Assembly (NCBI GenBank): GCA_030248295.1 | Contig: JASANH010000938.1 | Coordinates: 496,001 to 560,000, forward strand | Length of the DNA: 64,000 nucleotides | Direction of reading: 5' to 3' | Source of the DNA: Mesodorylaimus sp. YZB2_4 | Taxonomy: Eukaryota; Nematoda; Enoplea; Dorylaimida; Dorylaimidae | In this document: piece by piece, positions 13,666 through 57,292 of the stretch | Layout: each line of letters starts with the position of its first letter | Numbering within the stretch: position 1 is the stretch's first letter | Translations under genes and position numbers: made by a program | The notes under the pieces: model-generated | Told to the model about the DNA's origin: nothing | Seen by the model: the letters and a program-made list of their open reading frames with translations, nothing else | Database searches by the model: none

Positions 13666-15953
13666 TGCCTTCTTGAAGCAATACTAGCCGCCAGGGCGGC
13701 TTTTGTACTTATATGTATTTATACCTACTGTAAACGTGCTGCACTGCACGAAGTGAAGGTAGCTTGGGGGAGAGCACAATCTCGCTTGGGCACTTTTTAG
13801 CTTCAAAACCAATTGACTTAATTTTTTGGACATATATACGCCGCTTTTTTGGGTGCCTTTTTTGAGAACTATTGACGTACACGCGCTTATGTCTTTACAA
13901 CCAAATACGTCCTTGGCTTTGGCGCAATATTGTCTCAGGTTAACGTGCGTTGGACACTGTTTCTGTTATACTCGCCCACAAAAGACCAGCCAATGTTTCA
14001 AAATCTGTTTTGTTCACTGTCGTTGAAGTTCTTGTCATTCCTGACATCAGCTAATTTATCAACCTGCAAACTCGAATATCACTCCAAAAATTAAATGCAA
14101 ATTCTTCAGCGCCAGAAACCGTCCTTTTCTTCTTTTATGTTATGTGTAAGTACGTGTTTCTTGCAGTATCTACGTGCAATGTAAGTTTAGTACTCTACAA
14201 ATGACGTGCATTTTCGCGAATGCAGTTCTTGCAAAATGCGTGGGTTCAAGGTATTTTATGCTGTGCTCATAGTTTGCTGCGCTTTCATTTTTTGCGTCTT
14301 TTTAGAACTGAAGCTTGTTATTATTAGCGTTCTCCTATCAGAAGGAAATATAAACTTAGTAGTTAGGTTTTCGGAAGCGTCTTAGGGTTGCTTTGGTTCT
14401 AATATTGGCTGGTGTAAGCACCATTTTCGAGACTGTAGCTTGGCGTAGATGGTGTTTCAGACCTCAGTTGAATACTGCGACTTAGTTGGCATTTAAGTGT
14501 ACGAATGATTTATATTATACTTGGACTAAGTTGTACGAAGGGCGCATGGCGCATTCGGAAAAGCGTTGTCCATTCTTGTATTATGTTTTATGTAGGATTT
14601 AGGGAACGTGCCTTGATTTTGCTTATCCACTATGCTTTGCTGCCACAACAGCTGCTGCATCAGGGTCGGTGCAATGCCGCTGGTTCACCACATTGCCCTC
14701 TTTTAAAACAATCGTTTTACCCTTTTCATGTGACAATCGGATTTGAGCAATGCATTGTTTTAAATAAGTTGGATACTTTGCATTTTTATCTTCATATATT
14801 TGTGCATATTAATATCAATGAATAAGATGGGTGCTGAATCGAAAAGGAGCTGAGATGTTGTTCTTGAGGAAATGAGCCAACATTTTACCGTCTCGCCTAG
14901 AAATCAGCCGAGAGACTGTACCGAGAGAGGAGTTCTGTCTCCACTAAAGAGTACCTTCACGAGAGGTCAACGTGGAGAAGATACCAACTTCTTTGGACCA
15001 TGGACCTGCCTATACGACAGCCGAGACAGTTACTCATTAGGTTTCTCTCTCTCCGAGATCCCTACTGGGAGGGTACCGTGAGTCACTCACACCCATCCTG
15101 TCCGAACGCTGAATCACCCACACCACGATAGCCGCTTATGAAGACCATTCCGTGGGGCTTTGATTTTTGAATCTGTGAAAGGCAGCCTGTAGTATGCTGG
15201 GATCAAAAACCCTTATCTGAGGTGATTGGCGAGACAACCAGAATAAATGTAGCCATCGATTTCGGGAGTGGATTAATTATGTATCCTGACGGAACTAGTG
15301 CGCCAGGTACAGTACCTGTCGCCTAAAGCGTCATTTTGCTGGTCATCGGTTGTGGCATCCCAGCGCAGCTCCCGTATCTAAGAGGGACTCTATTTAGGGG
15401 GAGATGATCAACGATTCCCAATACTGTAAAATCGTATTGTAATATTCCATCAGGTCATATAAAAGTTGAATCATCATGCCGTACGCTATTCCATCGGATG
15501 ATGCCATCCATAAGAAGTTTACTGGTTTCTAAAATCTGCACATACTGTAACTCCGGTATTATGGTACAGTATTAACCTATGTACTGTATTTTGTAGAGAA
15601 ATACCATTTCCTACGTCAGCAAGAGCCAACACTGAAACAATAGTATACTACCCAATTATTCTCCAAGGTAAGTTGGCCCACGCAAAGTTTACTTTTCCTA
15701 GAGTACAAGTTGAACTGTCGCCTTGCATCAAGCGCACGTGGAAATGGCAAAGTGATAGCGGAACGGCGAGGCAAAGCCGCTCGACGCGATAAATCTATTG
15801 TTAGGAGACGAGACATGCGCGCAAGCGTTCTTGGCTGGCTTTCTTTGCTTTTCAAATTTCCTGCAGTGAATCATGTGCAAACACTGGCAGCATTGCACAA
15901 CGACGTTGTTGATGAGTAAGCAAACGCAATATAAGCTTTAGATGGCAGGAAAG
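13666..15953. other. nhr-23 3' UTR and intergenic DNA
   Basis: T-rich sequence after the nhr-23 stop probably includes its 3' UTR. No gene is supported. A weak copy of a dispersed repeat lies at 14935-15090. Short palindromic TACTGTA / TACAGTA motifs cluster at 15420-15590. Confidence 0.4.
14935..15090 (+). repeat. Degenerate copy of a dispersed repeat (family with 36.7 and 41.2 kb copies)
   Basis: The stretch with CGACAGCCGAGAC, a TCTCTC run, GGTACCG and GTGAGTCACTCAC follows the same order as the copies at 36700-36990 (plus) and 41085-41360 (minus), at lower identity. No coding capacity or terminal repeats are visible. Confidence 0.45.
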
Positions 15954-17693
15954 CAGGTGTTGGGCGTCGCCTAATGATGAGTCATCTTTTACCTATAACT
16001 ATTTTCGCCATCCTTTGAAACTCTCACTCGTCTCTGTGTGGCGTGGAAGTATGAAAACTTGCGGGTCCATGACTAGTCCTATCACGAGCGAAAGTTTTCG
16101 TTACGACATGAGTGGCGGTGCTGGTTTTTCGAGCGATTTAGATAAAGCTGAATTCGAAACTGACTTCTTTTCTCCTCTTTCTCACTATTCCACATCTATG
16201 ACCATGTCGGAATCGGATCTGTCACCACTTCCCGTCTACAACGATTCCAGCAACGGCTTCGTTTCCTTCTCGAGTTCTCACTTCGGGCGTAGAATGGGTG
16301 GCCACGGCGATCCTTCCTCCACCGACCACCCTTCGCCTATGGTCGATGAACAGAAAAGAATGAAACAGGCCATTCGAAGAGAGAGGAATCGAGCTGCGGC
16401 GGCCAAGTGCCGACAGAAGAAATTGGATCGTATTCAATATCTTCAGACGACAGTCGAAAATATCAAGGCTGCCAACAATCAGCTGATACTGACCAGTTTT
16501 CAACTTCAGCGTGAAATTCAGGAGCTCCGGCAGTGCCTGGCCGAACATCAACGACAGGGATGTAATTGCGAGTTTGGAATGGGCTCTTCGCGCAACTATC
16601 ACTGACGGCGGATAGATACTGTACTGTAGGTCATCCAAAACCGACTGCCTTATTGTTAAGCTGATGCGGACGTGCTTTATTCTCTGCTTTACTTATGTGA
16701 ATGCCAAAAGTGCGTTTTGTAGCCACCTCGCATTGTGGAATAGCCTCCTTAATCGCGAATGCGAGTTTGATTCATGAGCAGGATGGAGTAAACTGTGACC
16801 AGGCTGGGCGAAGAGTATGTCTTGCCAGACAACGATGTATCAAAATTGAGCGGGGAAGTGTTTAGGCATGAAACAAGGGATATGACCTTATCGTCCTGTC
16901 CATCCAGGTGCGCTGTCTTTTCATTACTATGCATCTGCTTATATGGAAGAGATATGACAAATTGCGCCATGTCAGGCTAATCGCAAGACAGCTGAGCAGT
17001 GAGCATAGAAAATCTGCATGGAAGAATCTATCGAAAAACAACTCTTTGTAGAACTGCTTTTGCCAAAGCTAAACAGCTAAGCTACCACTAGCTTCCCCCT
17101 CACTTATATCACCAGCTGTAAAACAGTCATAGCCCTTATGTCAAATCCAGATATATGAAAGTAATTTTACCACGAATCGGATGTGGCTGATCAAAGTCGG
17201 CAGGACAAAAACTGCAATTCGAGCAAGGCGAGTCTAGGACTACACTTGCAGCTGAAACATCAACCGAGGGCTTGATATTTCTCAGCCAGGGGTGATCAAT
17301 AGTTCTCTACCACGCGCCATATCCCACCAGGCGCAGGGGTTACACAAGTTATAATTACGAATGATGCGGATATTTGGAATTGCTAAAATTTGGATGCGGT
17401 ACCTATACTAAAGTAATTGTGGATCTTGGAACTGTTTACAGTGAGTGACAGAGGTTCGATGAAGTAGGTCATATCCATAATAGGCACTGGCGCAGAGAAA
17501 TACACTGCACAGGACTTCAGTGAATAGAGCCTCAAAGCCCCTACTTTGATATGCTCATCCTCTCGCTTGTGGGCCCTACGTAAATTTAGCAGGCCTTTAC
17601 TTCCCTAACTGATGTAAATTTGCAAATACGAGTGATAATCCCAATCTGTTTGGTAGTTTCAGATATATGCACCGGCTAGCCAAATCTGTTGTT
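15954..17693 (+). repeat. bZIP locus flanks that are duplicated at 25676-26322
   Basis: Two parts of this block recur near 26 kb: 15954-16050 (the bZIP 5' leader, including CTATTTTCGCCATCCTTTG) and about 17189-17693 (presumed 3' UTR or downstream DNA). In the second copy they are separated by about 60 bases instead of the 1.1 kb that holds the bZIP coding exon. Confidence 0.85.
16051..16605 (+). CDS. Jun/AP-1-like bZIP transcription factor, single exon, 184 aa
   Basis: The protein has an acidic, Ser-rich N-terminal half that could activate transcription. The basic region carries the AP-1 signature NRAAAAKCR at residues 113-121, followed by KLDRIQYLQ and a leucine zipper to about residue 165. 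A Cys-containing tail (QGCNCEF) ends the protein. The KCR followed by KKLDRI resembles Jun more than Fos or ATF3. The start is the ATG at 16051; an open frame continues upstream but has no earlier ATG. No intron is needed. The 5' leader and downstream sequence are duplicated about 9.7 kb away without the coding part. Such factors bind TGACTCA-type sites as dimers. The subfamily assignment is inferred. Confidence 0.85.
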   Translation: MKTCGSMTSPITSESFRYDMSGGAGFSSDLDKAEFETDFFSPLSHYSTSMTMSESDLSPLPVYNDSSNGFVSFSSSHFGRRMGGHGDPSSTDHPSPMVDEQKRMKQAIRRERNRAAAAKCRQKKLDRIQYLQTTVENIKAANNQLILTSFQLQREIQELRQCLAEHQRQGCNCEFGMGSSRNYH

Positions 17694-21300: not shown

Positions 21301-22962
21301 GCCGAAAGTATTACTAACAGTCATTTAGAAGGCTCACTGTGCCTAGAAATATTGCCTGTGTGTCAACAGCCCCTGTATTCCCCTGCATTTGATACCTTGC
21401 TTCGATAACGGGAATGGTATCTTGAAATAATCGCTGTAATAATCCAACACTTTTGGGCCCGCAGCTACGGCGTAGTCAGTCTTATTTATGAAAGACGGTC
21501 TTGCCCACACACGAAACTGAAAAATTTGCTGAAAAGAAACTGGCTACGACGTGCACAACATTCCTTACCAGGGTTTTTCCATCCTTGGTGTAATTGGATT
21601 TGGACTTGAAATCGCACACAGCCATGGCCAACAAGTACGTGGACATGTTGAGGGTGGGAGTGAAAGTAGTCACGCTCCAGCCGTTACTGAAACACGATGA
21701 CACTGATGACAGGTAAAAAAGGGCTTATTGCTCTAGCACTCATCGGAGTGCAATACCGACCCGAGTTTGTCTATCTGCTTTTCCATCCCGTTCGACAATG
21801 CAACCATGGACGAGGGGTGGATGATAGTGACGTAGAACACGGCTTTGTAGAACGGTTCATCGAAACAGGGCAACGCTCGCCTCGCGTCCGTCGCTTCAAA
21901 TTGCGTAGCTGCAAGCCATCTGAAAGCGAGCAGGAATCTTTGAGTTGTCAGGTACCGCACAACAGAAATGAGGGGTAGGTCATTAGACAAGTACTAAAAG
22001 AACACTGCACGCTCTTATCCTCAATCTGCTGCAACGCCCTCAAAAACAATACAGCGCGCGCGCACACTCCCATTCAGCCACATTCAGTAAACCCCCATAC
22101 AACTTACGAATAAGGCTCCTACTAATCTCACACCCATTTAACGTTCACTCAAAAGAATGTATGTCAAGAGCGTGGTAGCTGGGTGATAGGGTTTATGCTT
22201 CTGTAACTGACGATGAGAACCTCAAATGTTTAGTTCTGGGTGGCCAGGCGCGCCAAGAAAATACCGTAAAAGCAGAACGACAATTCTCCTGCTGTTCTTT
22301 TACCAGCCCAGCCGAGCTGACGCACCTGCTGGCCCACCCACCAAGAACCGGTCTTCCAAGATCAACAGATCCAAGCTTTTGAATGCGGGTTAGATAGGGA
22401 TAGGGTTATATGACCGAGGTCAGCATAAGCTATGACAACGCACATACCTCCACCTGCCTCCTTCGAAGTATCGACTCGTGTAGAATCCAGCCAAATCTTC
22501 GGCCTCCAAACTTCCACTGTAGCTGATATTCAACTGGTATACCTGGCCAGACTTCAAAGTCCTTCCAAAAAAGAAGGCTGCTTGTTGCAATTTTCCATCG
22601 TACTCGTACCGAGCCAAGTGACTCATAATTTTCCACGTCCCCTCAGCTTCCGCAAGGGTCACTGTGTCTTTGACCACCTCGATCTTGTCCATATTCAGTG
22701 TCACATTGTCAGTGTCGTCCAAGCACTCTATCAGAATGCTGACATTTCCCAGAAAGGTCAAGTTCAATTGCGGATCGTAACTTATGCCATCGGCTGGGAA
22801 GAATGGCTGCACTGAGAGTCGATAGTGAAGTGGTCTGAGAGTAGTGGGCAACGGTCCAAAGCGACGTCTTCTGGCCACTGATGCTGCATCACGGATTGAA
22901 AGCACGATGAATACAAGTTGACACACCAACTCGACAGCCCTTCTGCATCGACTGCTTGACAT
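18351..22962 (-). CDS. M1-family zinc aminopeptidase (aminopeptidase N type), 961 aa
   Basis: This type II membrane or secreted metallopeptidase removes N-terminal residues from peptides. Twenty exons join in phase to 2886 bases (exon 1 22448-22962; last exon 18351-18506). Residues 9-24 are a hydrophobic signal anchor. The exopeptidase motif GAMEN is at 315-319. The zinc site is HELSH at 351-355 with the third ligand Glu374 in WLNEGF. The catalytic Tyr438 lies in DDISYDKGGSIIR. The C-terminal ERAP1-like domain carries RSTVYC, WTLLWN and [18 protein letters not shown] 54-base intron (21002-21055), a multiple of three without stops, splits HELSHQ|WFGD. Intron 13 (19636-19693) appears to be GC-AG. 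Near 19125 an apparent TAA is avoided by a TTT|GTGAAG donor that keeps phase. The start is ATG 22960-22962. All key residues are intact. Confidence 0.95.
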
Positions 22963-24517
22963 GATAGCCACGGAACGGACTACTTCACAGCCCAATAACC
23001 CCTCTCTTCGACCCCTTTTTTGGCCTGGACCAAACGAATAGACCAAAACAGGATCGAATTGAGAACAGCCGTCACTGTGACGAAAACGATCGTTTTAATT
23101 GCGCCCCCCTTGCTCTAATCTTAAAACTGGTTTTGTTCAACCATTTGTGAACATATGCAAAATTGATGTTTGTAAATCGCTGAAGTAGCACTTCGACCCC
23201 AAAACCATAATAAAATACAGTCAGGCCAGCTAATAAGACTCTGCAAAAATCAAGGAAAAAGCTCTCTTATTCGCTGGTTTTTATAACCAGACTTCGTTGC
23301 GGCGGAAACAAATGGGGGTCGAAAACATGGCTCTTATATCCGAATAGCTCTTATAAATAGGAACGACAGACAAACCACAAACAATGTTGATTGGACAACC
23401 AGTATACGAGTACACGTTGTACAGTCAGACCTTTCTCAAACAGACGTTGCAAAAAGTGCACCCTCACACGTCGAGTACCGTCTCTAGTGTTTTCTTGAAG
23501 GGTGTTTTTCGATTGGATCCGCTGGTCTCAGCTCACTTTTCTAACCCGTCTGCGAATACGTAAAACTGATGTACGATCTCTACAATCGATATTGCGCCTT
23601 TCACACAATATCGATCTAAAAGCGCGAAAGCTACATTTGGATAACAAAGGAGACATGGTAACAGGGCGACAGGTGACCCTCTACGTCAACATGTGGTTTT
23701 GCCTGGCAACTGCATCAGCTCGGAATTTTGCACATCTACGTACGTATCTCACCACTGAAGCCTGAAGCCATTTGGGGACGCACAAGTTCCGAGTGCCTTC
23801 TTAGCAAAATAGCCAAGCTAGAGTTACTTCGATCACCGACGACTATATAAGCGGACCAAAAATAAGGCAGTGAAGGCGCAATTCAAGTCAGCTCAGAACC
23901 GGAATACGCACCCGCCAGGCTACTGTTCAATGTTCTGGACAATCAGTGGGGTGACGCCACCCAAACTGGCAGCCAAAGCTTAGCATCTAAATCGAAAAAG
24001 AAAAATTACAGCTAGCCATAATAACAACCAGCACCTCACGCGTCATCACTCGACCATCAGCACAGTTTGTGCTCATCCAGGGACGGACATTGCACCGTTT
24101 TCTCGATTTACTTTGCAAAAGAAAGTAATTTCTTCTCTTGAAATCTGTCAGCAATTTACTGCAGTCCGATGGGAAGCCCTCGTTTCGATAAGGCGACAGG
24201 AATGGTCACAGCTGCTACACCTGGAAAATAATAATGAAATCCTTGACCCGCTTTTGTATCATATCACCGCAGATTCCCCCACGATCCCAGAAATCAGTCC
24301 CGCAATCTTACCTGCCATATTGACTGGCTGCGTGAAAAGTCATCCTTGCGTTCTCTTTCGTATCCTTGCCCTTCTCCAGCCTTCTGGAAGGCTGGTGTCA
24401 AAGGGATATCCACTTTCGACTGACCACCTCGACCTCGGAGCACGTTGAAGAAGTCGTTTGCTATCAACCATCTGATCTCCAAAGCTTTTTAAAGCGATCG
24501 TTGGGCTCCGACCAATA
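22963..24517. other. Intergenic
   Basis: No gene supported. This contains the aminopeptidase upstream region and the 3' flank of the DYNC2I2-like sequence. The small open frames here lack motifs and splice partners. Confidence 0.5.
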
Positions 24518-30386: not shown

Positions 30387-30394
30387 TATATAAG
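30387..30394 (+). promoter_or_regulatory. TATA box (TATATAAG)
   Basis: Strong TATA element about 90 bases before the ATG at 30481. This predicts transcription start near 30418 and a 60-base leader. The tandem paralogue has a matching element. Confidence 0.7.
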
Positions 30395-30480: not shown

Positions 30481-31999
30481 ATGTTGTCCACGATCTCTCT
30501 TCTCTTGGCTTTGTGCTTCACTGCTCAGGCCGTCCGACGAGATTCGGTCTGGACAGTCAAACTGACACCGACCGACAATACCAACGACTACGAGGGTCAA
30601 GTCGAGGTCTTGGCCGTCTTCACCGACGGTAGGCAACACGCTGTCGTCCTGCCCTCCACCGAATTCCGTAAGGACGAGACGGCTAGCTTCACAGTGGGAC
30701 TAGTCTCACCCGGCCCGCTGCAGATGGTCTACGTCCGAACCCATGGCGTGTGCCCAATCGGTCTGATCCCGTTGAACGTTCTCCGTTTGAGCCGAATCGA
30801 GCTGATCTCTGAGGACACGAACACGAGCTACAGCAAGACCTTTGATGATCTGGCCATCAAAGACGCCTGCCAAAGCAGCAAGTCGCTGGGAACAGCCATT
30901 CAGGACTTCGATCAAGTCACTGCCGCCTACTGCCTGGTCGATGGCAAGCAGTACGCGGACGGTGAACAATTCGACATGGGCTGCGTGGCCAGGTGCACGT
31001 GCATCAAAGGCAACTTCGGTTGCGTGGACATGTGCCCCACTGTGCAATTGCCACCAGATCAAAAGTGCCATTTCGTACGCTTGCCTGGTCAGTGCTGCGA
31101 CACGGTCCGATGCGAGGAGGACAAGAGCATGAACTCCTGCGACTCGCCCGTACCCAAGTACACAATGGACGACAAACGGCAAGAGGCTCCCGCTCGAAGA
31201 TACCCGTGGTCAGTGTTCTTGTGCACGGATATCAAATGCTCGCAAGTCTATGCAGGCGTCATTGTTGGAAGCAGGTAAGAATCTGATGTTGCCTTCCTTT
31301 CTTGCGCACTATCTAAACCTAGCCCTTCTTTTCAGACATGTCTTGACCTTCGCTCCCGACCTATCCTCATTCACCAACCTTCGTCTGACCATCGGCCAGT
31401 ACATTGCTCCAAGTATCAACAACGCTGACGACTTCAGTCCTTTGCGAGTGGTCAATATCACCACCCACTCCGAGTTCGTCAATCCCGGTTCGCCCATCGC
31501 GGACAGCGCCTCTCGCTTGCAGCTCCTTCAATTGGACAGCGCGCTCATGTTTGACACTCAAATCCAAGCCGCCAACCTGCCTTTCAGCAAGGAGCAATGC
31601 AGCCAGCTGTCCAAGCAAAGCTGCCCTGTGATGACGGTCGGCTGGGACAGGACGGATGAGCAAGATCCCGAAGTCCGTCAGTGGTTCCTACACGCAGAAA
31701 AGTCCACTCTGGATCAAACAGCATGTGCGAAAGGAACAAGAGCGCATCCGAAAACGGTCACTGGTCCCAGAGTGCGTGGTGAACAACGCCTATGCATCAG
31801 TGGTTTGGAACGCACTGATTGCACAGGCCCGCTGGGCGGTGCCGTGGTCTCTAGCCGAGGCTCGGTTGACTTCTTGGTGGGTATGTTGGACCCGGACGCA
31901 GCCCTTTTTCAATGCGTCAACCGAGGCACGGCCTCCATGTTGTCCATATGCACATATGCTGACTGGATTTCGGCCACCATCACAGCGGGTAATAATTAG
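30481..31999 (+). CDS. Secreted PLAT-like / VWC / inactive trypsin-like protein, copy 1, 485 aa
   Basis: Two exons (30481-31274, 31336-31999) are separated by a 61-base intron. The signal peptide is residues 1-17. Residues ~23-110 form a PLAT/LH2-like beta-sandwich (VWTVKLTP, YEGQVEVLAVF, SPGPLQMVYVRTHG). Residues 151-211 are a von Willebrand C domain (CLVDGKQY, CTCIKGNFGCVDMCP, PGQCC). From ~241 the sequence follows an S1 peptidase (YPWSVFLC, HVLTFAPDL, CPVMTVGWD, CTGPLGGAVV), but the triad is gone: TAAHC reads TFAPD, the Asp strand reads SRLQLLQL, and GDSGG reads GPLGG. It is therefore predicted to bind rather than cleave. A tandem paralogue starts 2.2 kb downstream, also behind a strong TATA box. 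The PLAT label rests on fold pattern and is less sure than VWC and S1. The tissue is unknown. Confidence 0.85.
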
Positions 32000-34143
32000 G
32001 TTTATTTTTTTCTTGTTAAAATCATTTTCGAGCCAGTGACGATGTGTATGCATGTGTACAGTAGGCCCTGTAACCCATTTTCGGGAGTCTAGAATGGCGA
32101 TGTTGATTACTGTTTCGACTTGACGCAAAAGCGTGCCTTACGTGTATAAGGGACTTGTTGTCAATATTTGTGTGTCCGTCTGACTTGACGCCATGTGCGG
32201 CGAAGTGGTTGTCCCTATCTGTTGCTATGGCATGCCTTATGCAATATTTTATTTTGACTGCCATCTTTCGGATGGACACGCAAATCTGTTGGTTATACTG
32301 GTTATGTGATCAGTTCAAATAGAGGGATCTCCGATACTCGTGCTCTTTCCTTCCTCCGCACACAAACACGACCAGCACTCACTACCGCACGTTATGCGAA
32401 CATGTCAAACAGGTGCTCAGATTCCATTCCCTTTTCCCTTTTCACTATTCAGGTTGCGCATAAACGTAGGCGCGTCAAGCCCATTTAAAAAAAAGCAGTC
32501 TGGCGCTGTGATCGTTACAGTCCGAAGAGCAGTTTGAACGCTAATTTATTGGACAGTTGTTTAGATAGAGTCGTCAAAAATGACGGCTGGCGCACCTTTA
32601 TGACTCTCTCTATTTGCCTTCAAGGGTAAAAAAGAAGTAATGGCTTTGTACTTGGCTCTGGGGCACTTTGGCGAGTTAGGAAAATTAGGCGAATACAAAT
32701 TCGAAAGCACTGCGGGACCAGAAGATGCGAGAAGGTGTGTAAGGCTTCTGGCATCAGGGTGCACAGTGCACACCTCACGCTCGTCAGCGCCCGTACTCTG
32801 GAACGAGCATAATATGATTGCCAATGCACAACGGGCACAACGATTTTGTTGGACCAAGAAACCATTAGGCACTGCCTTAATTCAGTTGAAGTTCGATAAG
32901 GAATGTGGCGACAACCTGTACCAATTTCCTCACTCCTGAGCTTGCATCATAACCACTCATGAGATGTGGGTGCTTGGCGTTTGATCCTTCGTAGGGTCCA
33001 GAATTTGCGGAGTGACATATTTGTGTAATAACTATATTTCACTGCTCCTGACTAATGGCTCCGTCTGATAATAAATTTTCTTTCTCCCAGACTCACTCCT
33101 GTCAAACTACTTGAATCACATCTGCATTCTTGCCGGCATGACGCCTACCTCCTTGCATACCTAAATCTTTGACGATGCTGCACTTTTCTTGTCCTTTCAC
33201 TCCGATTATCGCTATTTTTGTCACCTACAAGTTACCGCACCTCACAAGCGAACCTTTCATGATTGGGATTAAACGACTGATGTTTGTTATTTCGTTTCGA
33301 TTGTACATGAGCCGGATCTTCTGACTGCTCAGAAAAATATTTTCGTTTTCGACTCACTGTTTCTGTTTTCGTTCATTTCGATTGGCAAACATCGTTTTCG
33401 ACATGTTTTTGAAATTGATAAGTCACAACATGTAATTTCCGCTCCGCAGGAAACATCACTATGCGGGGTGCTCGGGGGGGGGGGGGGGGGGGGGAACCTT
33501 GAAGACCCTGTTATTATGAACGCTCGAAGGCGGTTAATCACATCTTTGACTCGGCCACCCAAATACCGGGAGGCATCGTCAGTAAATTGCAAGGTACTGC
33601 AGTAATTGAAACGTTTTGATCGCATTTTTCGCTATCTGATCATGATAACTGAATCACCAAAAAAACATATGCCTGCTACGCTCCGTTTCATGAGAAGGAA
33701 AAACGCAGGTTTTTTCATTTTAAAAATCATTTTCGCTCTCTAACTGCATCAAAATTCCAGAACCATGTTCACCGGAGCTTATCTCATGTTTCGATTTGTA
33801 GAAAATTGTAACGCGCACGATTTCTTTCGCGTGCATTCGCTCTTTTCCTGCCTGCACCCATTCCACGCCTTTAATTACATTATCACTCGATCGTCAAAAA
33901 GACATTAATATGGAATTTCGGGCAATCGCATTCCACTGAAATGAGTTGAAAATTATGGAAAATACAAAAGACACGTACAGTATGTAAGACTGCGCAAACA
34001 AACTGCACGCCAAGACGTCAATGCATTCCTCGCGTAGCGATCCTAATAACAAAGAAAGAACTAGAATTGCCGAAGATGAACGTTGGTGACAATGGCCAGA
34101 AAGGAGACACGACTTTGCTCTGGCTGGACACTTACGTCTGCAG
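32000..34143. other. Spacer between the tandem PLAT-VWC-pseudoprotease genes
   Basis: 3' UTR of copy 1 followed by AT-rich DNA. It includes a 21-base G homopolymer at 33474-33494. No coding exon found. Confidence 0.5.
33474..33494 (+). repeat. 21-base poly(G) tract
   Basis: Uninterrupted run of G. It could form a G-quadruplex and its length may be unreliable in assembly. Confidence 0.9.
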
Positions 34144-34150
34144 TATATAA
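34144..34150 (+). promoter_or_regulatory. TATA box (TATATAA)
   Basis: Lies about 82 bases before ATG 34226. Transcription would begin near 34175, which is why the earlier open-frame positions at 34169-34225 are not used as the start. Confidence 0.7.
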
Positions 34151-34225
34151 AGTGCCATTCGACTTCGTTTGAGTCTTTGCATGGTCGATCAAGATTTCAA
34201 CAAGCTCTTTTTTGGAACGTCAGGC

Positions 34226-35797
34226 ATGGACGGTCTTTGGGGAAGTGTTTTAGTGATGAGCGCATTCGTATTGTCCACTGGATACGTCACTGCGGAAGAT
34301 TATCCGTGGACAGTCACTCTGACTGTGTCCCATGAACAGGGCAGCGAGTTCGAAGGAGTGGTCGAGATGTTGGGTCAGTTCGAAAGTGAGACATGGCAAT
34401 CGGCCCAGTTGCCCTTTAATAAATACGTTCTCGGTCGGGAGTATACTTTCCCCATCAGCTTCACCTCACCTGGCCCTTTGAGGATGGCCTATCTGAGGAC
34501 GCATAGCCGCTGTCCTCCTCTCAACACCTTGCGATTACAACGTTTGGCGTGGGTGTCACAATATCAGAACGTGACCTACACTTCTGCAGTGCACGAATTG
34601 GTCATCAAGGATTCGTGTTCAAGCAGCGATTCTCCAGGCACCCAGGTCGCGGACATTGACTCGAGAGTACAAGTGGCAGACTTGGATGCTATGAACGATT
34701 GCCTGCTGGACGGTGTGGTCTATGCTCAAGGTCAAAGTTTCGAGATGAACTGCCGAGCGTTGTGTACCTGCGATGGGGGCTCAATTGTGTGCGTGGATAA
34801 CTGCCCTACGACGACTTGGGCTTCAGAGCAGAAGTGCCGGGCGATTCGGACTCCTGGCCAGTGCTGTGAGGAGATACGATGCGACGAGGACTTTCGCATG
34901 CGATCATGCCAAATGCCAAAAAAGACTGGAACGCTGAGAGGAGAACTAGCGAATGGACAGAGATCCATACTAGGCGGTATTCAACGATATCCATGGGCGG
35001 TATTCATCTGTGCCGACAGCGAGTGCAAGACCACTTTGGGCGGTGTAATGGTCAGTGACAGGTACAGTATGACTCACCTCACAACAGGGATTCCATGCAC
35101 TACAAAAAGATTTTTCAGGCATGTTCTAACTTTTGCTCCCGATCTGAAAAACGCAAAAATACTTCGAATGGCGGCGGGAAAACACACACTTGATACTTCG
35201 CTTAACCAACGAGATGACGATATGAAAAAGATTGATATCAAAGCAATAATTACGCATCCGGATTTTGCCAAGGTGGGCGTGAATGGTTCGTTGACTTCAA
35301 GCAGCACCTCCCGTCTTCAGCTTATCGAATTATGGGATTTACCGCATACTGGCAAAGATTTACAAGCTGCCAATCTCCCCTTGAGCAGTACACAGTGCTT
35401 GAAACTGTCTTCCAGCGAATGCCCAGTCATGACCGTTGGCTGGGATCCGACGAACACAGATGCAGACGTTTCAACGGGCAAAGTGTATTTGCACGCCCAA
35501 ATCTCCAAGTTAGATCCCCGCCCATGTGACACTGGTCTATTCTTCACGAAAAGCGGGGGAATATTGACATTGACCAAGTCGAGAAACGGAAGAAGGGACT
35601 GTGTTAGTGGTCTTGTGCGGCAGGACTGCTCTGGTCCCACTGGTGGCGCCCTAGTAGCTACGGCGGGTGATAACACTGATTTTGTAATCGGGCTATTGGA
35701 GCAGAGGTCGACGCAGGAAGAATGTCCACGGCCAGGTTCTGCGCGAGTGCTACCTCTCTGTAGGTACATTGATTGGATAGACAGTTCGATTAGCTAA
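34226..35797 (+). CDS. Secreted PLAT-like / VWC / inactive trypsin-like protein, copy 2, 504 aa
   Basis: Exons 34226-35061 and 35119-35797. The 57-base intron is a multiple of three without stops, so an unspliced reading stays open, but the splice sites (GACAG|GTACAG, TTTTTCAG|GC) match copy 1 exactly in position. The signal peptide is ~1-23. PLAT-like residues ~27-110 include YPWTVTLTV and SPGPLRMAYLRTHS. VWC is at 159-219 (CLLDGVVYAQG, PGQCC). The S1-like part begins at ~254 (RYPWAVFICAD, HVLTFAPDL, CPVMTVGWD, CSGPTGGALV). The catalytic His, Asp and Ser are all replaced. An AATAAA at 35815 ends the transcript. The last part of exon 2 and the 3' UTR recur as a fragment at 36181-36424. Confidence 0.85.
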   Translation: MDGLWGSVLVMSAFVLSTGYVTAEDYPWTVTLTVSHEQGSEFEGVVEMLGQFESETWQSAQLPFNKYVLGREYTFPISFTSPGPLRMAYLRTHSRCPPLNTLRLQRLAWVSQYQNVTYTSAVHELVIKDSCSSSDSPGTQVADIDSRVQVADLDAMNDCLLDGVVYAQGQSFEMNCRALCTCDGGSIVCVDNCPTTTWASEQKCRAIRTPGQCCEEIRCDEDFRMRSCQMPKKTGTLRGELANGQRSILGGIQRYPWAVFICADSECKTTLGGVMVSDRYSMTHLTTGIPCTTKRFFRHVLTFAPDLKNAKILRMAAGKHTLDTSLNQRDDDMKKIDIKAIITHPDFAKVGVNGSLTSSSTSRLQLIELWDLPHTGKDLQAANLPLSSTQCLKLSSSECPVMTVGWDPTNTDADVSTGKVYLHAQISKLDPRPCDTGLFFTKSGGILTLTKSRNGRRDCVSGLVRQDCSGPTGGALVATAGDNTDFVIGLLEQRSTQEECPRPGSARVLPLCRYIDWIDSSIS

Positions 35798-35814: not shown

Positions 35815-35820
35815 AATAAA
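35815..35820 (+). terminator. AATAAA polyadenylation signal of copy 2
   Basis: 17 bases after the stop of the second PLAT-VWC-pseudoprotease gene. The downstream duplicate carries AATCAA at this point. Confidence 0.6.
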
Positions 35821-36180: not shown

Positions 36181-36424
36181 AGAATGTTCACGGCCAGGTT
36201 CTGCGCGAGTGCTACCTCTCTGTAGATATATTGATTGGATAGACAGCTCGACTAGCTAAAATAACGAAGTTAGCCTAATCAAGGTTATCCTGAGTCCATT
36301 TAGCGGGTTTGCATAGTACAGCTCTTAAATGTATACTCGTAGGTCCGTTTTTTGACTTCGCACCGTGTAAGCTGTACACTGTAAGGGTACATGCTTCGAT
36401 GCATTCTGCCCACAGGCTGCACTG
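36181..36424 (+). pseudogene. Duplicated 3' end of the copy 2 gene
   Basis: Matches 35719-35947: same final exon (CACGGCCAGGTTCTGCGCGA, GATTGGATAGACAG), the same stop context and the same 3' UTR order. The polyadenylation hexamer is lost (AATCAA). The offset is about 460-475 bases, so it is a short direct duplication of a gene end, now without its 5' part. Confidence 0.85.
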
Positions 36425-39041: not shown

Positions 39042-40115
39042 TTAATATCCAGGAGCCAAACGGGCTGGTGGGCAGTGGTCGCAGCTGCCTGGGGCACCGG
39101 GTTTTCCCTTTTCGCCTGGACCGCCTGGACCGCCATTTTTGCCAGGGCCGCCAGGGGCACCACCATCTCCGGGCGGACCAGCGGGACCGGGTCCACCATC
39201 CTTGCCTGGAGCACCGGGCAGGCCAGGGGAACCACCTGGGCCTGGTTTGCCAGCGGCACCAGGGGCTCCAGCGGGACCAGCTTTGCCGGGGACGAGCTTG
39301 CCGTTCTCACCTGAAGAGGCCCAAATGAGTGTTTAGGCCTTACATTATGACAAAATTAAGCCGCTTACCAGGGGCTCCCTTCTCTCCTCCGTTTCCAGGG
39401 GGTCCATTAGGGCCGGGTGGACCACGCGGGCCTTGGTCGCCTGGTTTGCCATCAGAGCCAGGAGTTCCAGGGTCGCCGGCTGGTCCGTCCTTGCCTTTCT
39501 CGCCTGGGGGACCACCATCTCCTGGTGGAGCTTCGCATGGGCATTGTTCGGCCACCTTGCCGAGCAACTCAGGTTGCGGTGGTGCAGCGGGACCACGGTC
39601 ACCGGGTTCACCAGGGAAGCCATCAACGCCGTCATGGCCGTCAACACCAGGACCACCTTGTGGGCCAGCTGGACCACGATGACAAGTACAGCACTGTCCT
39701 AATATGACTGGTGTCGTGGCCTGAGGCTCGTCCTTTTCGATCTTGCTTGCCCAGACCTTCAAGCTGGCTGCCGTGTTGGCCGCGGCACGGCGAGAACGCA
39801 GGTTGTTCAAAGCGTTTATCAAGCGGCCAGAGCGGGCATCGGCGCCACCACCAACCGATTGGATGTCCAACATTTCACGCCAGATGTCGCGAGATCGTGC
39901 CTAAACGGGGCTCAACTTTAATAGGCCTTCATTAAAACAAGTCTTTTCTGGTAGCGTACCTTGCAGAAGTCGATTTCGACCTGGACCGAGGCTTCCAAGG
40001 TTTGGACATAGTGGAAGACCATGGGGAATGTCAGGAGACATCCAGTGACAGCCACTGTGCTGAACACGATGGCCGCGAAGGCGATGGTACGCGACGACGA
40101 TGCTTGGTAACCCAT
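39042..40115 (-). CDS. Nematode cuticle collagen, 318 aa
   Basis: Structural collagen of the worm cuticle. Three exons (39960-40115, 39369-39900, 39042-39310) join in phase to 957 bases. The N-terminus [20 protein letters not shown] begins the nematode cuticle collagen domain with its membrane or signal segment, followed by [13 protein letters not shown] and [21 protein letters not shown] Cys cluster starts the triple-helical part, which has Gly-X-Y runs broken by a Cys-containing gap ([10 protein letters not shown]). It ends with [13 protein letters not shown], a typical cuticle-collagen C-terminus. The start is ATG 40113-40115; the open frame extends further only with a TTG. A TATA box lies 60 bases upstream. 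This gene is the clearest nematode marker in the window. Confidence 0.96.
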
Positions 40116-55803: not shown

Positions 55804-57031
55804 TCAGGGCGGCTTCTCCGCATCTGGTTCAGGGGGCGCATTCTTCGACCGTATTTGCTAAAAACACCGTAGAACAGGATTTAACTGACTTGAGCGATAG
55901 AAGAATCATCTTACTCGTATCCGGCAGCTCATGTCTTCTTGGATGCACAGCATTCCGCCGGAGTTGGTGAACATGTTGCAATAATCAGGGGCCGAGAACA
56001 GGGTCACCAGTTTCTCGTCTGCGAAAAACTCGAAGCCATTGTGGACAACCTGGTCCGACAGGCACATAATGGTCTCAAGTCATGCTTCGAGAAAGTGCCT
56101 ATTACCTGATGAGCTCGAGCAATCAGGTCCAAGCCCAGGTTTTCACACACGTCGACCACGGCATCCACGCCGAACAGATACGAGATTCCACGCGGGCTGG
56201 GAATGAATCCTGAAATGGACAATTGGCATGCTGCTTTAGTAGCCGCGTCTCCTCGACTCACCAATCACATTTGGATCGGGATCCGCCCAAAGTAGGTCCG
56301 CCACGAGCCCCTCGTTCGGCGCTTCGGCGAATGGACGTTCTACGGTGCGTAATTGATCGAGACCTCGTAGATCCGGCGAGATGCCACCATGCATGCACAA
56401 GATCCGACCCGCCACCAGTCCCGACAGAGGCATCCATTCGAAGACAAGCTGAAGATGGCACCCACGGGCAGTCAAGAATCGAGGGTGGGAGAGCGCGCTC
56501 GCAACTTACGTTGATGAGCTCATAGAGCTCGGCGTCGTATCGGACCGTGACCTCTTCCATGAAACCGTACACGCGATTGATCGATCTCGTTTCATGATTG
56601 CCTCTCAGCAGGTAAATATCATTGGGTGACTGCAGTTTCAAGGCGAAAAGCAGAAAGATCGTCTCCAAGCTCATCGGACCACGGTCGACGTAGTCCCCTA
56701 CAACGGAGCCAATAGTTATTGATCTTTTTCGACGAAACTCAACCATCTTACCGAGAAAGAGGTACCGCGACTTTGGTGGCCATCCGTTCAGATCGAACAA
56801 ACGTATCAGGTCACGAAATTGGCCGTGTATGTCACCACATATGGCTATTGGATGAGGGGTCTCCACCAACGTCGGCTGGCCCTTGAAAACTGCCTTGACG
56901 TTGTCCAGCAACCACACCGCGTCGGCTCGATCCAATGGTTTTTCGTGGTATTCGTACACCTGCGCCTTGAACTTGTCGATAATGAGCTTCACTTTCTGAG
57001 CATCAGTCGCTTCGGGCGTCGGACTCGCCAT
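55804..57031 (-). CDS. Divergent PP1-type Ser/Thr phosphatase catalytic subunit, 315 aa
   Basis: This PPP-family enzyme dephosphorylates Ser/Thr residues. Six exons (56752-57031, 56510-56697, 56262-56448, 56106-56209, 55915-56049, 55804-55857) join in phase to 948 bases. All metal and catalytic motifs are present: GDIHGQ 66-71, GDYVDRG 94-100, RGNHE 125-129, HGG 176-178, SPRG with the conserved Arg, and RAHQV 250-254. The usual SAPNYCGEF reads SAPDYCNMF at 272-280, and many surface positions differ from PP1, so it is a fast-evolving paralogue; nematodes have sperm-enriched PP1 paralogues of this sort. Intron 1 (56698-56751) is 54 bases, in frame and stop-free, splitting the GDYVDRG motif. Its ATG lies 261 bases from the start of a divergent membrane-protein gene. 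Confidence 0.92.
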
Positions 57032-57292
57032 CTTCCCTCAATGATACGACTGAGCTACCGTCCTCCACCAAGCACGAGCGCACACTGATGCGAAACCCAG
57101 CATAAGCGAATGCAGAGGAAGTGTAAAGTGTCACGTGACCATAAGCTCCCACCCGAGAGCCGACTCCGTCTACCAGTGGCTCGTGGAATGGTCTGACGCG
57201 CCTGATCAGCCTGAGATCACCGTCCAAAGAGCTCGCATCTCCTACTGCAGCCGATCTGGTTTGGTTCACTCGCGAGTTAGAATTCCTCCAGT
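57032..57292. promoter_or_regulatory. Shared bidirectional promoter region (261 bp)
   Basis: All DNA between the two divergent start codons. No TATA box is obvious. The arrangement suggests co-expression of the phosphatase and the membrane protein. Confidence 0.55.

What the first reader, a model, noticed from the sequence alone, without database searches (positions are those of the whole stretch)
30481..35797. Tandem secreted proteins combining a PLAT-like domain, VWC and a catalytically dead trypsin fold
Both copies keep the S1 core pattern (PW.VF.C, HVLTFAPDL, CPVMTVGWD, C(T/S)GP.GGA) yet lack His, Asp and Ser. The PLAT-like + VWC + pseudo-S1 order is not one I know. Signal peptides and strong TATA boxes suggest abundant secreted products, perhaps lipid- or matrix-binding decoys.
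Basis: partly seen in the sequence, partly recalled or inferred. Interest (0 to 1): 0.75.

Follow-up and report, generated by a model that had tools for sequence, protein, structure and literature searches.

The report
Nematode dead-protease family, PLAT-VWC-trypsin order
Two neighbouring roundworm genes encode what look like secreted proteins that join a lipase-like surface-binding domain, a matrix-type cysteine-rich domain and a trypsin-like domain that has lost its cutting residues, and they belong to a wider family of such dead proteases in this genome whose job is not known.

Summary
Genes A (485 aa) and B (504 aa), two exons each, span 30481-35797 and are 39% identical. The C-terminal domain is trypsin-like (S1): B passes Pfam's cut-off, A matches a tryptase, and a family profile matches 344 solved sequences. 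It is dead: His57, Asp102 and Ser195 are Pro, Arg and Leu/Thr. The middle domain is a ten-cysteine VWC of CCN3/NOV type. The N-terminal domain has no sequence match, but its predicted structure (pLDDT 84) hits PLAT-bearing proteins in all 50 PDB rows listed of 1171. PLAT rests on fold alone.

New here: gene C with homologous sequence throughout, and six divergent genes with VWC-like plus pseudo-S1 parts elsewhere in the genome. None of the nine keeps a full triad. All nine share one phase-2 intron, absent from the 9 S1 genes with an intact His motif that could be read of 10 fetched. Cuticle-collagen matches support a nematode (133). Inactive S1 homologues are common; ten paper searches did not show this domain order, but no nematode proteome was searchable. 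Likely secreted, non-enzymatic binding proteins; function is inferred.

The parts
30387..30393 (+). TATATAA motif upstream of gene A
   Evidence: 94 nt before the ATG; motif match only
30481..31274 (+). Gene A exon 1: signal peptide (by eye), PLAT-like domain, VWC, first strands of pseudo-S1
30547..30870 (+). Gene A PLAT-like domain (residues about 23-130)
   Evidence: AlphaFold2 model pLDDT 84, pTM 0.78; the 50 listed Foldseek PDB rows all PLAT-bearing
30931..31113 (+). Gene A VWC domain (residues 151-211), ten cysteines
   Evidence: Pfam VWC 24.0 bits, below the 27.6 cut-off; 28.9 bits and over it in the genome scan; CCN3/NOV 1.6e-08; cysteine count
31275..31335 (+). Gene A intron, phase 2, gt-ag, 61 nt
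31336..31999 (+). Gene A exon 2: rest of pseudo-S1 (57 is Pro272, 102 is Arg325, 195 is Leu431), stop TAG
34144..34150 (+). TATATAA motif upstream of gene B
   Evidence: 82 nt before the ATG
34226..35061 (+). Gene B exon 1: signal peptide (by eye), PLAT-like domain, VWC, first strands of pseudo-S1
34301..34618 (+). Gene B PLAT-like domain (residues about 26-131)
   Evidence: homology to A; similar strand order in the full-length model, block pLDDT 57-83 over its first 110 residues
34700..34882 (+). Gene B VWC domain (residues 159-219), ten cysteines
   Evidence: CCN3/NOV VWC 1.1e-10; Pfam 21.6 bits, below cut-off, 31.8 bits and over it in the genome scan
35062..35118 (+). Gene B intron, phase 2, 57 nt, open in frame
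35119..35797 (+). Gene B exon 2: rest of pseudo-S1 (Pro, Arg, Thr at the triad positions), stop TAA
   Evidence: Pfam Trypsin 29.7 bits, cut-off 20.6
35815..35820 (+). AATAAA polyadenylation-like signal after gene B
   Evidence: motif only

Best explanation
Genes A and B (and C on another contig) encode secreted, non-enzymatic S1 homologues. The PLAT-like domain docks the protein on a lipid or protein surface, the CCN-type VWC binds matrix or a secreted ligand or drives assembly, and the dead S1 domain is a protein-binding face that competes with or regulates active S1 proteases or their partners. Shown: gene models, S1 and VWC homology, loss of the triad, shared family intron. Shown by predicted fold only: PLAT. 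Inferred: secretion, surface docking, regulation of proteases. I put the identity (secreted PLAT-VWC-pseudo-S1 protein) at about 0.85 and the functional part at about 0.35.
For: S1. Triad lost in A, B, C, and no full triad in any of the 8 members aligned; in D3, the ninth, position 57 is Ser by its sequence and 195 is Leu by spacing. VWC. PLAT fold: model; of 1171 PDB matches at E up to 10 the 50 listed are all chains of proteins that carry PLAT (31 lipoxygenase, 13 lipase, 6 alpha-toxin chains, many of them repeats of one protein; probability 1.00, TMq 0.56-0.74); in the viral library nothing passes E 0.001, rank 1 has TMq 0.30 and the highest listed TMq is 0.39. In A, B and C the replaced pseudo-active site is itself conserved: 18 of 27 residues within 4 of the triad positions are identical in all three, against 60 of 219 in the rest of the domain (Fisher p 1e-4; 49 of 20,000 random three-window draws reach it; one radius tried). 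The genome has many S1 genes that could be partners (173 exon-level matches from 150 scored of 304 candidates).
Against: No sequence-level PLAT match: Pfam lists none (its filters drop most weak matches); profile comparison with five PLAT sequences of the same genome gives 0.3% probability; a profile search of PDB finds nothing. Only one Foldseek hit is under 0.001. A has no Pfam Trypsin hit and C has neither Trypsin nor VWC. Segments around the triad are structural core in any S1 domain, so their conservation may be for folding. No expression, localisation or binding data. N-terminal parts of E, F and H could not be shown to be PLAT; those of D1, D3 and G were not tested.
Confidence: 0.5

Rival explanations
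1. Structural proteins of an extracellular matrix (cuticle, eggshell, pseudocoelom), in which all three domains are only cystine-stabilised building blocks and no protease is regulated.
For: VWC of CCN type; an invariant cysteine between VWC and S1 plus two invariant cysteines inside S1, at the NLP-x-C and following position, in 8 of 8 aligned members fit a cross-linked scaffold; a cuticle-collagen gene lies nearby in the window.
Against: Neighbourhood means little in a nematode genome; repeat or low-complexity sequence typical of structural proteins is absent from A and B by eye; the derived pseudo-active site is kept.
Confidence: 0.3
2. The N-terminal domain is another beta-sandwich (C2, transthyretin-like) that merely resembles PLAT, so the architecture is beta-sandwich, VWC, pseudo-S1 without lipase-type docking.
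For: No sequence profile recognises PLAT; Foldseek E-values are modest; the alignment behind the model had four rows.
Against: The 50 listed PDB matches all carry PLAT, none of the 50 is an Ig, FN3 or transthyretin chain (the other 1121 were not shown); the model is confident (pLDDT 84).
Confidence: 0.15
3. Decaying pseudogenes left by tandem duplication.
For: A copied 3' fragment of gene B lies 462 nt downstream of its source. Some matched stretches on C111 hold stops, though the self-match of G also shows one, so these may be intron bases.
Against: Intact two-exon frames in A, B and C; dN/dS about 0.18 for A-C, with dS near saturation; canonical splice sites; derived residues conserved between genes about 40% identical.
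Confidence: 0.03
4. An active peptidase with a non-canonical mechanism, for example Thr at position 195 in B.
For: Gly193, Gly196 and Gly197 are kept in A, B and C; B carries an RSILGG motif before YPW that recalls the zymogen cleavage site. In D1, D3, F and G a Ser sits two places after 195 and a shifted alignment could bring it there.
Against: 57 is Pro and 102 is Arg in A, B and C and 194 is Pro; A and C have Leu at 195; D1, D3, F and G have no His at 57.
Confidence: 0.02

Closest known systems
Arthropod serine protease homologues, e.g. clip-A SPHs and masquerade-like proteins
   Same: S1 domains without a full triad, some behind a cysteine-rich N-terminal module; in Tenebrio 125 of 269 S1 proteins lack conserved triad residues (PMC11172050, abstract and passages).
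   Different: No clip domain was listed here; VWC and a PLAT-like fold take its place. Masquerade and the cofactor roles in phenoloxidase activation are recalled, not read.
CCN3/NOV and other CCN-type VWC proteins
   Same: Best match of the VWC in solved structures (1.1e-10 for B) with the same C-x3-C-x-C and CC-x3-C spacing in the printed alignment.
   Different: CCN proteins carry IGFBP, TSP1 and CTCK modules and no S1 domain (recalled).
PLAT domains of pancreatic lipases and lipoxygenases
   Same: Fold of the predicted N-terminal domain; the loop of residues 73-82 of the model, low in confidence, is hydrophobic in A and C, where lipases have their beta-5' loop (recalled).
   Different: No sequence match to PF01477; attached to VWC and a dead S1, not to a lipid-active enzyme.
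Nematode DUF316 (PF03761) trypsin-like proteins
   Same: Nematode proteins with an S1-like domain (recalled).
   Different: No DUF316 match was listed for the six proteins given or the six exon pieces, at E up to 10.

Membership tests
S1 (trypsin-like) domain superfamily, as homologue | Profile match over the whole domain | tested here: met
   B 29.7 bits, cut-off 20.6; A to alpha-tryptase 7.6e-07 over residues 234-477; 8-member profile to activated protein C 6e-15 over positions 2-235. A and C alone give no Pfam Trypsin hit.
Active S1 peptidase | His57, Asp102, Ser195 | tested here: not met
   Pro, Arg, Leu in A and C; Pro, Arg, Thr in B, in the family alignment and three joint alignments. 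One search placed 57 and 102 otherwise and is rejected; it too has no Ser at 195.
Active S1 peptidase | Cys42-Cys58 disulfide and Asp194 | tested here: not met
   In A, B, C position 58 is Asp, 42 is Val, Thr, Ile and 194 is Pro (one search aligns a nearby Cys with 42).
VWC domain | Pfam PF00093 gathering score | tested here: inconclusive
   A 24.0 and B 21.6 bits, below 27.6, in hmmscan; 28.9 and 31.8, over it, in the genome scan; member H passes both; C has no VWC hit.
VWC domain | Ten cysteines with CxC and CC motifs | tested here: met
   Ten each in A and B; five cysteines invariant in 8 of 8 aligned members, one of them just after the VWC; CCN3 alignment.
PLAT domain | PLAT beta-sandwich fold | tested here: met
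   Predicted structure only.
PLAT domain | Profile match to PF01477 | tested here: not met
   No hit listed up to E 10; 0.3% by hhalign against five own-genome PLATs.
Clip-domain serine protease homologues | Clip domain | tested here: not met
   None listed by Pfam.
DUF316 | Match to PF03761 | tested here: not met
   None listed up to E 10.
Secreted proteins | Cleavable signal peptide | not testable with these tools
   Hydrophobic N-termini read by eye in A, B, C and E.

The most novel reading that the evidence does not exclude
A nematode-lineage family of at least nine secreted pseudoproteases, built on VWC plus dead S1, in which one branch (A, B, C) carries a lipase-type PLAT anchor and has turned the former catalytic cleft (FAPD, SRLQ, C-x-GP-x-GGA) into a conserved ligand-binding site. 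Member E, which still has His57 and Asp102 but Asn at 195, would preserve an early step of the loss.
Probability: 0.3. Interest if true: 0.65.

Novelty: new variant of a known kind. Interest (0 to 1): 0.5.

Why it matters
Dead S1 domains are common in animals, but here a family has kept VWC-like plus pseudo-S1 parts while its members differ in how much of the triad is left, so the order of loss may be read inside one genome. A PLAT anchor on a dead protease, if confirmed, would be an unusual way to place a protease regulator on lipid or matrix surfaces, and it is simple to test with purified protein.

Tried and rejected
Structure of the whole of B: modelled from the unspliced open frame, which carries 19 intron-encoded residues; mean pLDDT 51, so I drew no S1 fold from it and did not fold-search it. 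Sequence proof of PLAT failed by Pfam, PDB profile and hhalign. PLAT in E, F, H: E gave a weak link to A-B-C (E 0.0044, 7.9% probability), F and H none. The 17-row alignment misplaced exon starts and the 6-row one a tail of E; the latter was trimmed and used. The three-group alignment with one trypsin misplaced segments around 57, 102 and, in D1 and G, 195; the triad table rests. Naming the species: one paper search gave a false lead, a human genome figure; not pursued. A VWC plus S1 gene with intact triad in this genome: none appeared, but these searches are exon-wise and capped. Chance-level Pfam hits (FnI_RECK, TILa, Fer4_11, FIT1_2 and others below cut-off) were not followed. Papers: ten searches used; by their listings none returned a paper joining VWC or PLAT with a nematode trypsin domain; most subscription papers are not held. 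The lipase review PMC8287333 (passages) concerns the beta-5 loop of the catalytic domain, so the beta-5' loop of the C-terminal domain stays recalled. PMC5106787 (passages) gave general background only. NCBIfam gave nothing.
Full report
Gene models. Two genes lie head to tail on the + strand. A is encoded by 30481-31274 and 31336-31999 (485 aa), B by 34226-35061 and 35119-35797 (504 aa). They align over 491 columns at 39% identity. The introns (61 and 57 nt) have gt-ag ends and sit at the same codon in the same phase. B's intron is open in frame, so its unspliced ORF of 548 aa should not be taken for the protein.

The S1 domain. Pfam Trypsin matches B at 29.7 bits (cut-off 20.6) and does not list A. 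A matches alpha-tryptase directly (7.6e-07, residues 234-477). A profile of eight family members matches 344 PDB sequences at E up to 0.001 (60 shown), best activated protein C (6e-15) along the whole domain. LTAAHC has become LTFAPD, NDIALL has become SRLQL[LIV]-like, and C-x-GDSGGP has become C-x-GP-x-GGA. In the family alignment, and in three joint alignments with an intact trypsin of the same genome, positions 57, 102 and 195 are Pro, Arg and Leu in A and C, and Pro, Arg and Thr in B; 58 is Asp and 194 is Pro. A smaller alignment put a nearby His and, in A and C, a nearby Asp on or near 57 and 102; I reject it, since VLTFAPD lines up with VLTAAHC, and Ser195 is missing there too. These proteins cannot work as classical S1 peptidases.

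The VWC domain. Ten cysteines lie in residues 151-211 of A and 159-219 of B. The best solved match is the VWC of CCN3/NOV (1.6e-08 for A, 1.1e-10 for B; 3.7e-11 for the family profile). Pfam scores lie below the curated cut-off in hmmscan (24.0 and 21.6 against 27.6) and above it in the genome scan (28.9 and 31.8); I count the domain as present.

The N-terminal domain. No sequence search finds a relative (Pfam; PDB profile). AlphaFold2 on 118 residues of A with three paralogue rows gave a confident eight-strand model (pLDDT 84, pTM 0.78). Foldseek against PDB found 1171 matches at E up to 10 and listed 50; all 50 are chains of proteins that carry PLAT: 31 lipoxygenase, 13 pancreatic or lipoprotein lipase, 6 alpha-toxin. 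I classified them from the printed names, that these proteins carry PLAT is recalled, and many rows repeat one protein. Probability is 1.00 and TMq 0.56-0.74, but only the first row has E below 0.001. In the viral structure library no match passes 0.001; rank 1 has TMq 0.30 and the highest listed is 0.39. I therefore accept a PLAT-like fold, with no claim of sequence homology: an HMM comparison with five PLAT sequences of the same genome is empty.

The wider family. Searches of the window's own genome (145.1 Mb, 1067 contigs) with parts of A, B, E, F, G and H give gene C (contig C220, 46% and 52% identical to A in exons 1 and 2) and more distant genes E (C85), F (C226), G (C54), H (C125), D1 and D3 (C111). 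I analysed nine genes: A, B, C, D1, D3, E, F, G, H. Two further partial copies on C111 (77.2-78.6 kb and 91.5-92.0 kb) were left out. Support is uneven. E and H pass Pfam Trypsin (46.8 and 37.9 bits) and H passes VWC (28.4 bits). C has neither Pfam Trypsin nor VWC and G neither; F, D1 and D3 have no VWC hit, D3 has a sub-threshold Trypsin hit (15.4 bits), F and D1 none. These are tied to the rest by pairwise matches to A exon 1 (C 1.2e-73, E 1.1e-11, D1 5.6e-07, F 1.2e-06, G 6.3e-04, D3 7.0e-04), H by matches to E (2.1e-05) and C (7.6e-05), by invariant cysteines and by the intron.

The shared intron. In all nine the S1 domain is split at the same place, two bases into the codon that precedes the strand [HWL]-x-LT or similar before position 57. 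Of ten fetched S1 genes, nine show the stretch from PW (or PF) to the intact His motif in one open stretch without an intron there; L042 showed no such stretch. These nine were not all checked for the rest of their triad. The intron thus sets the family apart from those S1 genes.

The triad across the family, in the order 57/102/195: A P/R/L; B P/R/T; C P/R/L; D1 S/G/R; E H/D/N; F N/N/I; G S/D/L; H N/D/D (8 rows), and D3 S/D/L, read from its sequence and spacing. So 57 is His in 1 of 9 and 102 is Asp in 4 of 9. Ser at 195 is absent in 9 of 9 by these alignments; the letters at 195 for D1, F and G differ in one of three joint alignments (never Ser). In D1, D3, F and G a Ser lies two places downstream (GSG), and a shifted alignment could bring it to 195; those four lack His57 in any case. 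No member has a full triad. Whether Ser195 went first cannot be decided.

Selection. For A-C the NG86 estimate is dN 0.47, dS 2.59, near saturation; A-B and B-C gave no ratio. In A, B and C, 18 of 27 residues within four of the three triad positions are identical, against 60 of 219 elsewhere in the domain (Fisher p 1e-4; 49 of 20,000 random three-window draws reach 18). The conserved residues there include derived ones (Pro57, Asp58, Arg102, Gln104, Pro194, Ala198). This hints at a kept function of the site, but those segments are core strands and loops in any S1 domain, so folding may explain it.

How it may work. Secretion is read from hydrophobic N-termini. The PLAT-like fold offers a docking face; the loop between the sixth and seventh listed strands (residues 73-82 of the model) is hydrophobic in A (PIGLIPL) and C (PLGLLP), shorter in B, and low in model confidence; lipases use a loop there for lipid contact (recalled). 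VWC domains bind matrix and growth factors (recalled). A dead S1 domain is best read as a protein-binding face; insects have many such homologues (PMC11172050, abstract and passages). I favour a surface-docked regulator or decoy for proteases, at about 0.35; a structural matrix role is the main rival.

Organism. 133 Col_cuticle_N matches, one of them inside the window (C2:535951-536079, window 39951-40079), support a nematode. The species was not identified. The genome has many S1 genes (173 exon-level matches from 150 scored of 304 candidates), more than I recall for Caenorhabditis.

Limits. No nematode or other animal proteome was searchable here, so novelty of the order rests on ten paper searches in an open-access library and on the absence of a named match in Pfam and NCBIfam. 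Expression, secretion and binding are untested.

Noticed in passing
window 36189-36320: A copy of the 3' end of gene B and its downstream sequence: 93 of the first 100 bases match the stretch from 35727; a 29-residue piece is 83% identical. It looks like a leftover of local duplication.
   Followed up: partly
window 39951-40079 and 39343-39900, - strand: Nematode cuticle-collagen sequence: Col_cuticle_N match and collagen repeats.
   Followed up: partly
G000 C85:342333-344858, - strand (L019): Family member E keeps His57 and Asp102 but has Asn at position 195, with a long acidic stretch near the C-terminus that may be coding or intron; a possible early stage of loss.
   Followed up: partly
G000 C111, about 73-79 kb and 90-95.5 kb (L017, L018): Tandem array of family members, with one exon 2 nearly identical between the two clusters; some matched stretches hold stops that may be intron bases.
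   Followed up: partly
window 34226-35797: Gene B has RSILGG shortly before YPW, which recalls the zymogen cleavage site R-IVGG of active S1 proteases; A and C lack it.
   Followed up: no
window 15916-16602 (+), 22423-23094 (-), 56261-57037 (-): Stretches matching a bZIP factor, an M1 aminopeptidase N-terminal domain and a calcineurin-like phosphoesterase.
   Followed up: no
window about 33475-33495: Long run of G between genes A and B, a possible assembly weak point.
   Followed up: no
own genome, many contigs: 173 exon-level Trypsin matches (a lower bound), with several on contigs C96, C68, C5 and C38.
   Followed up: no
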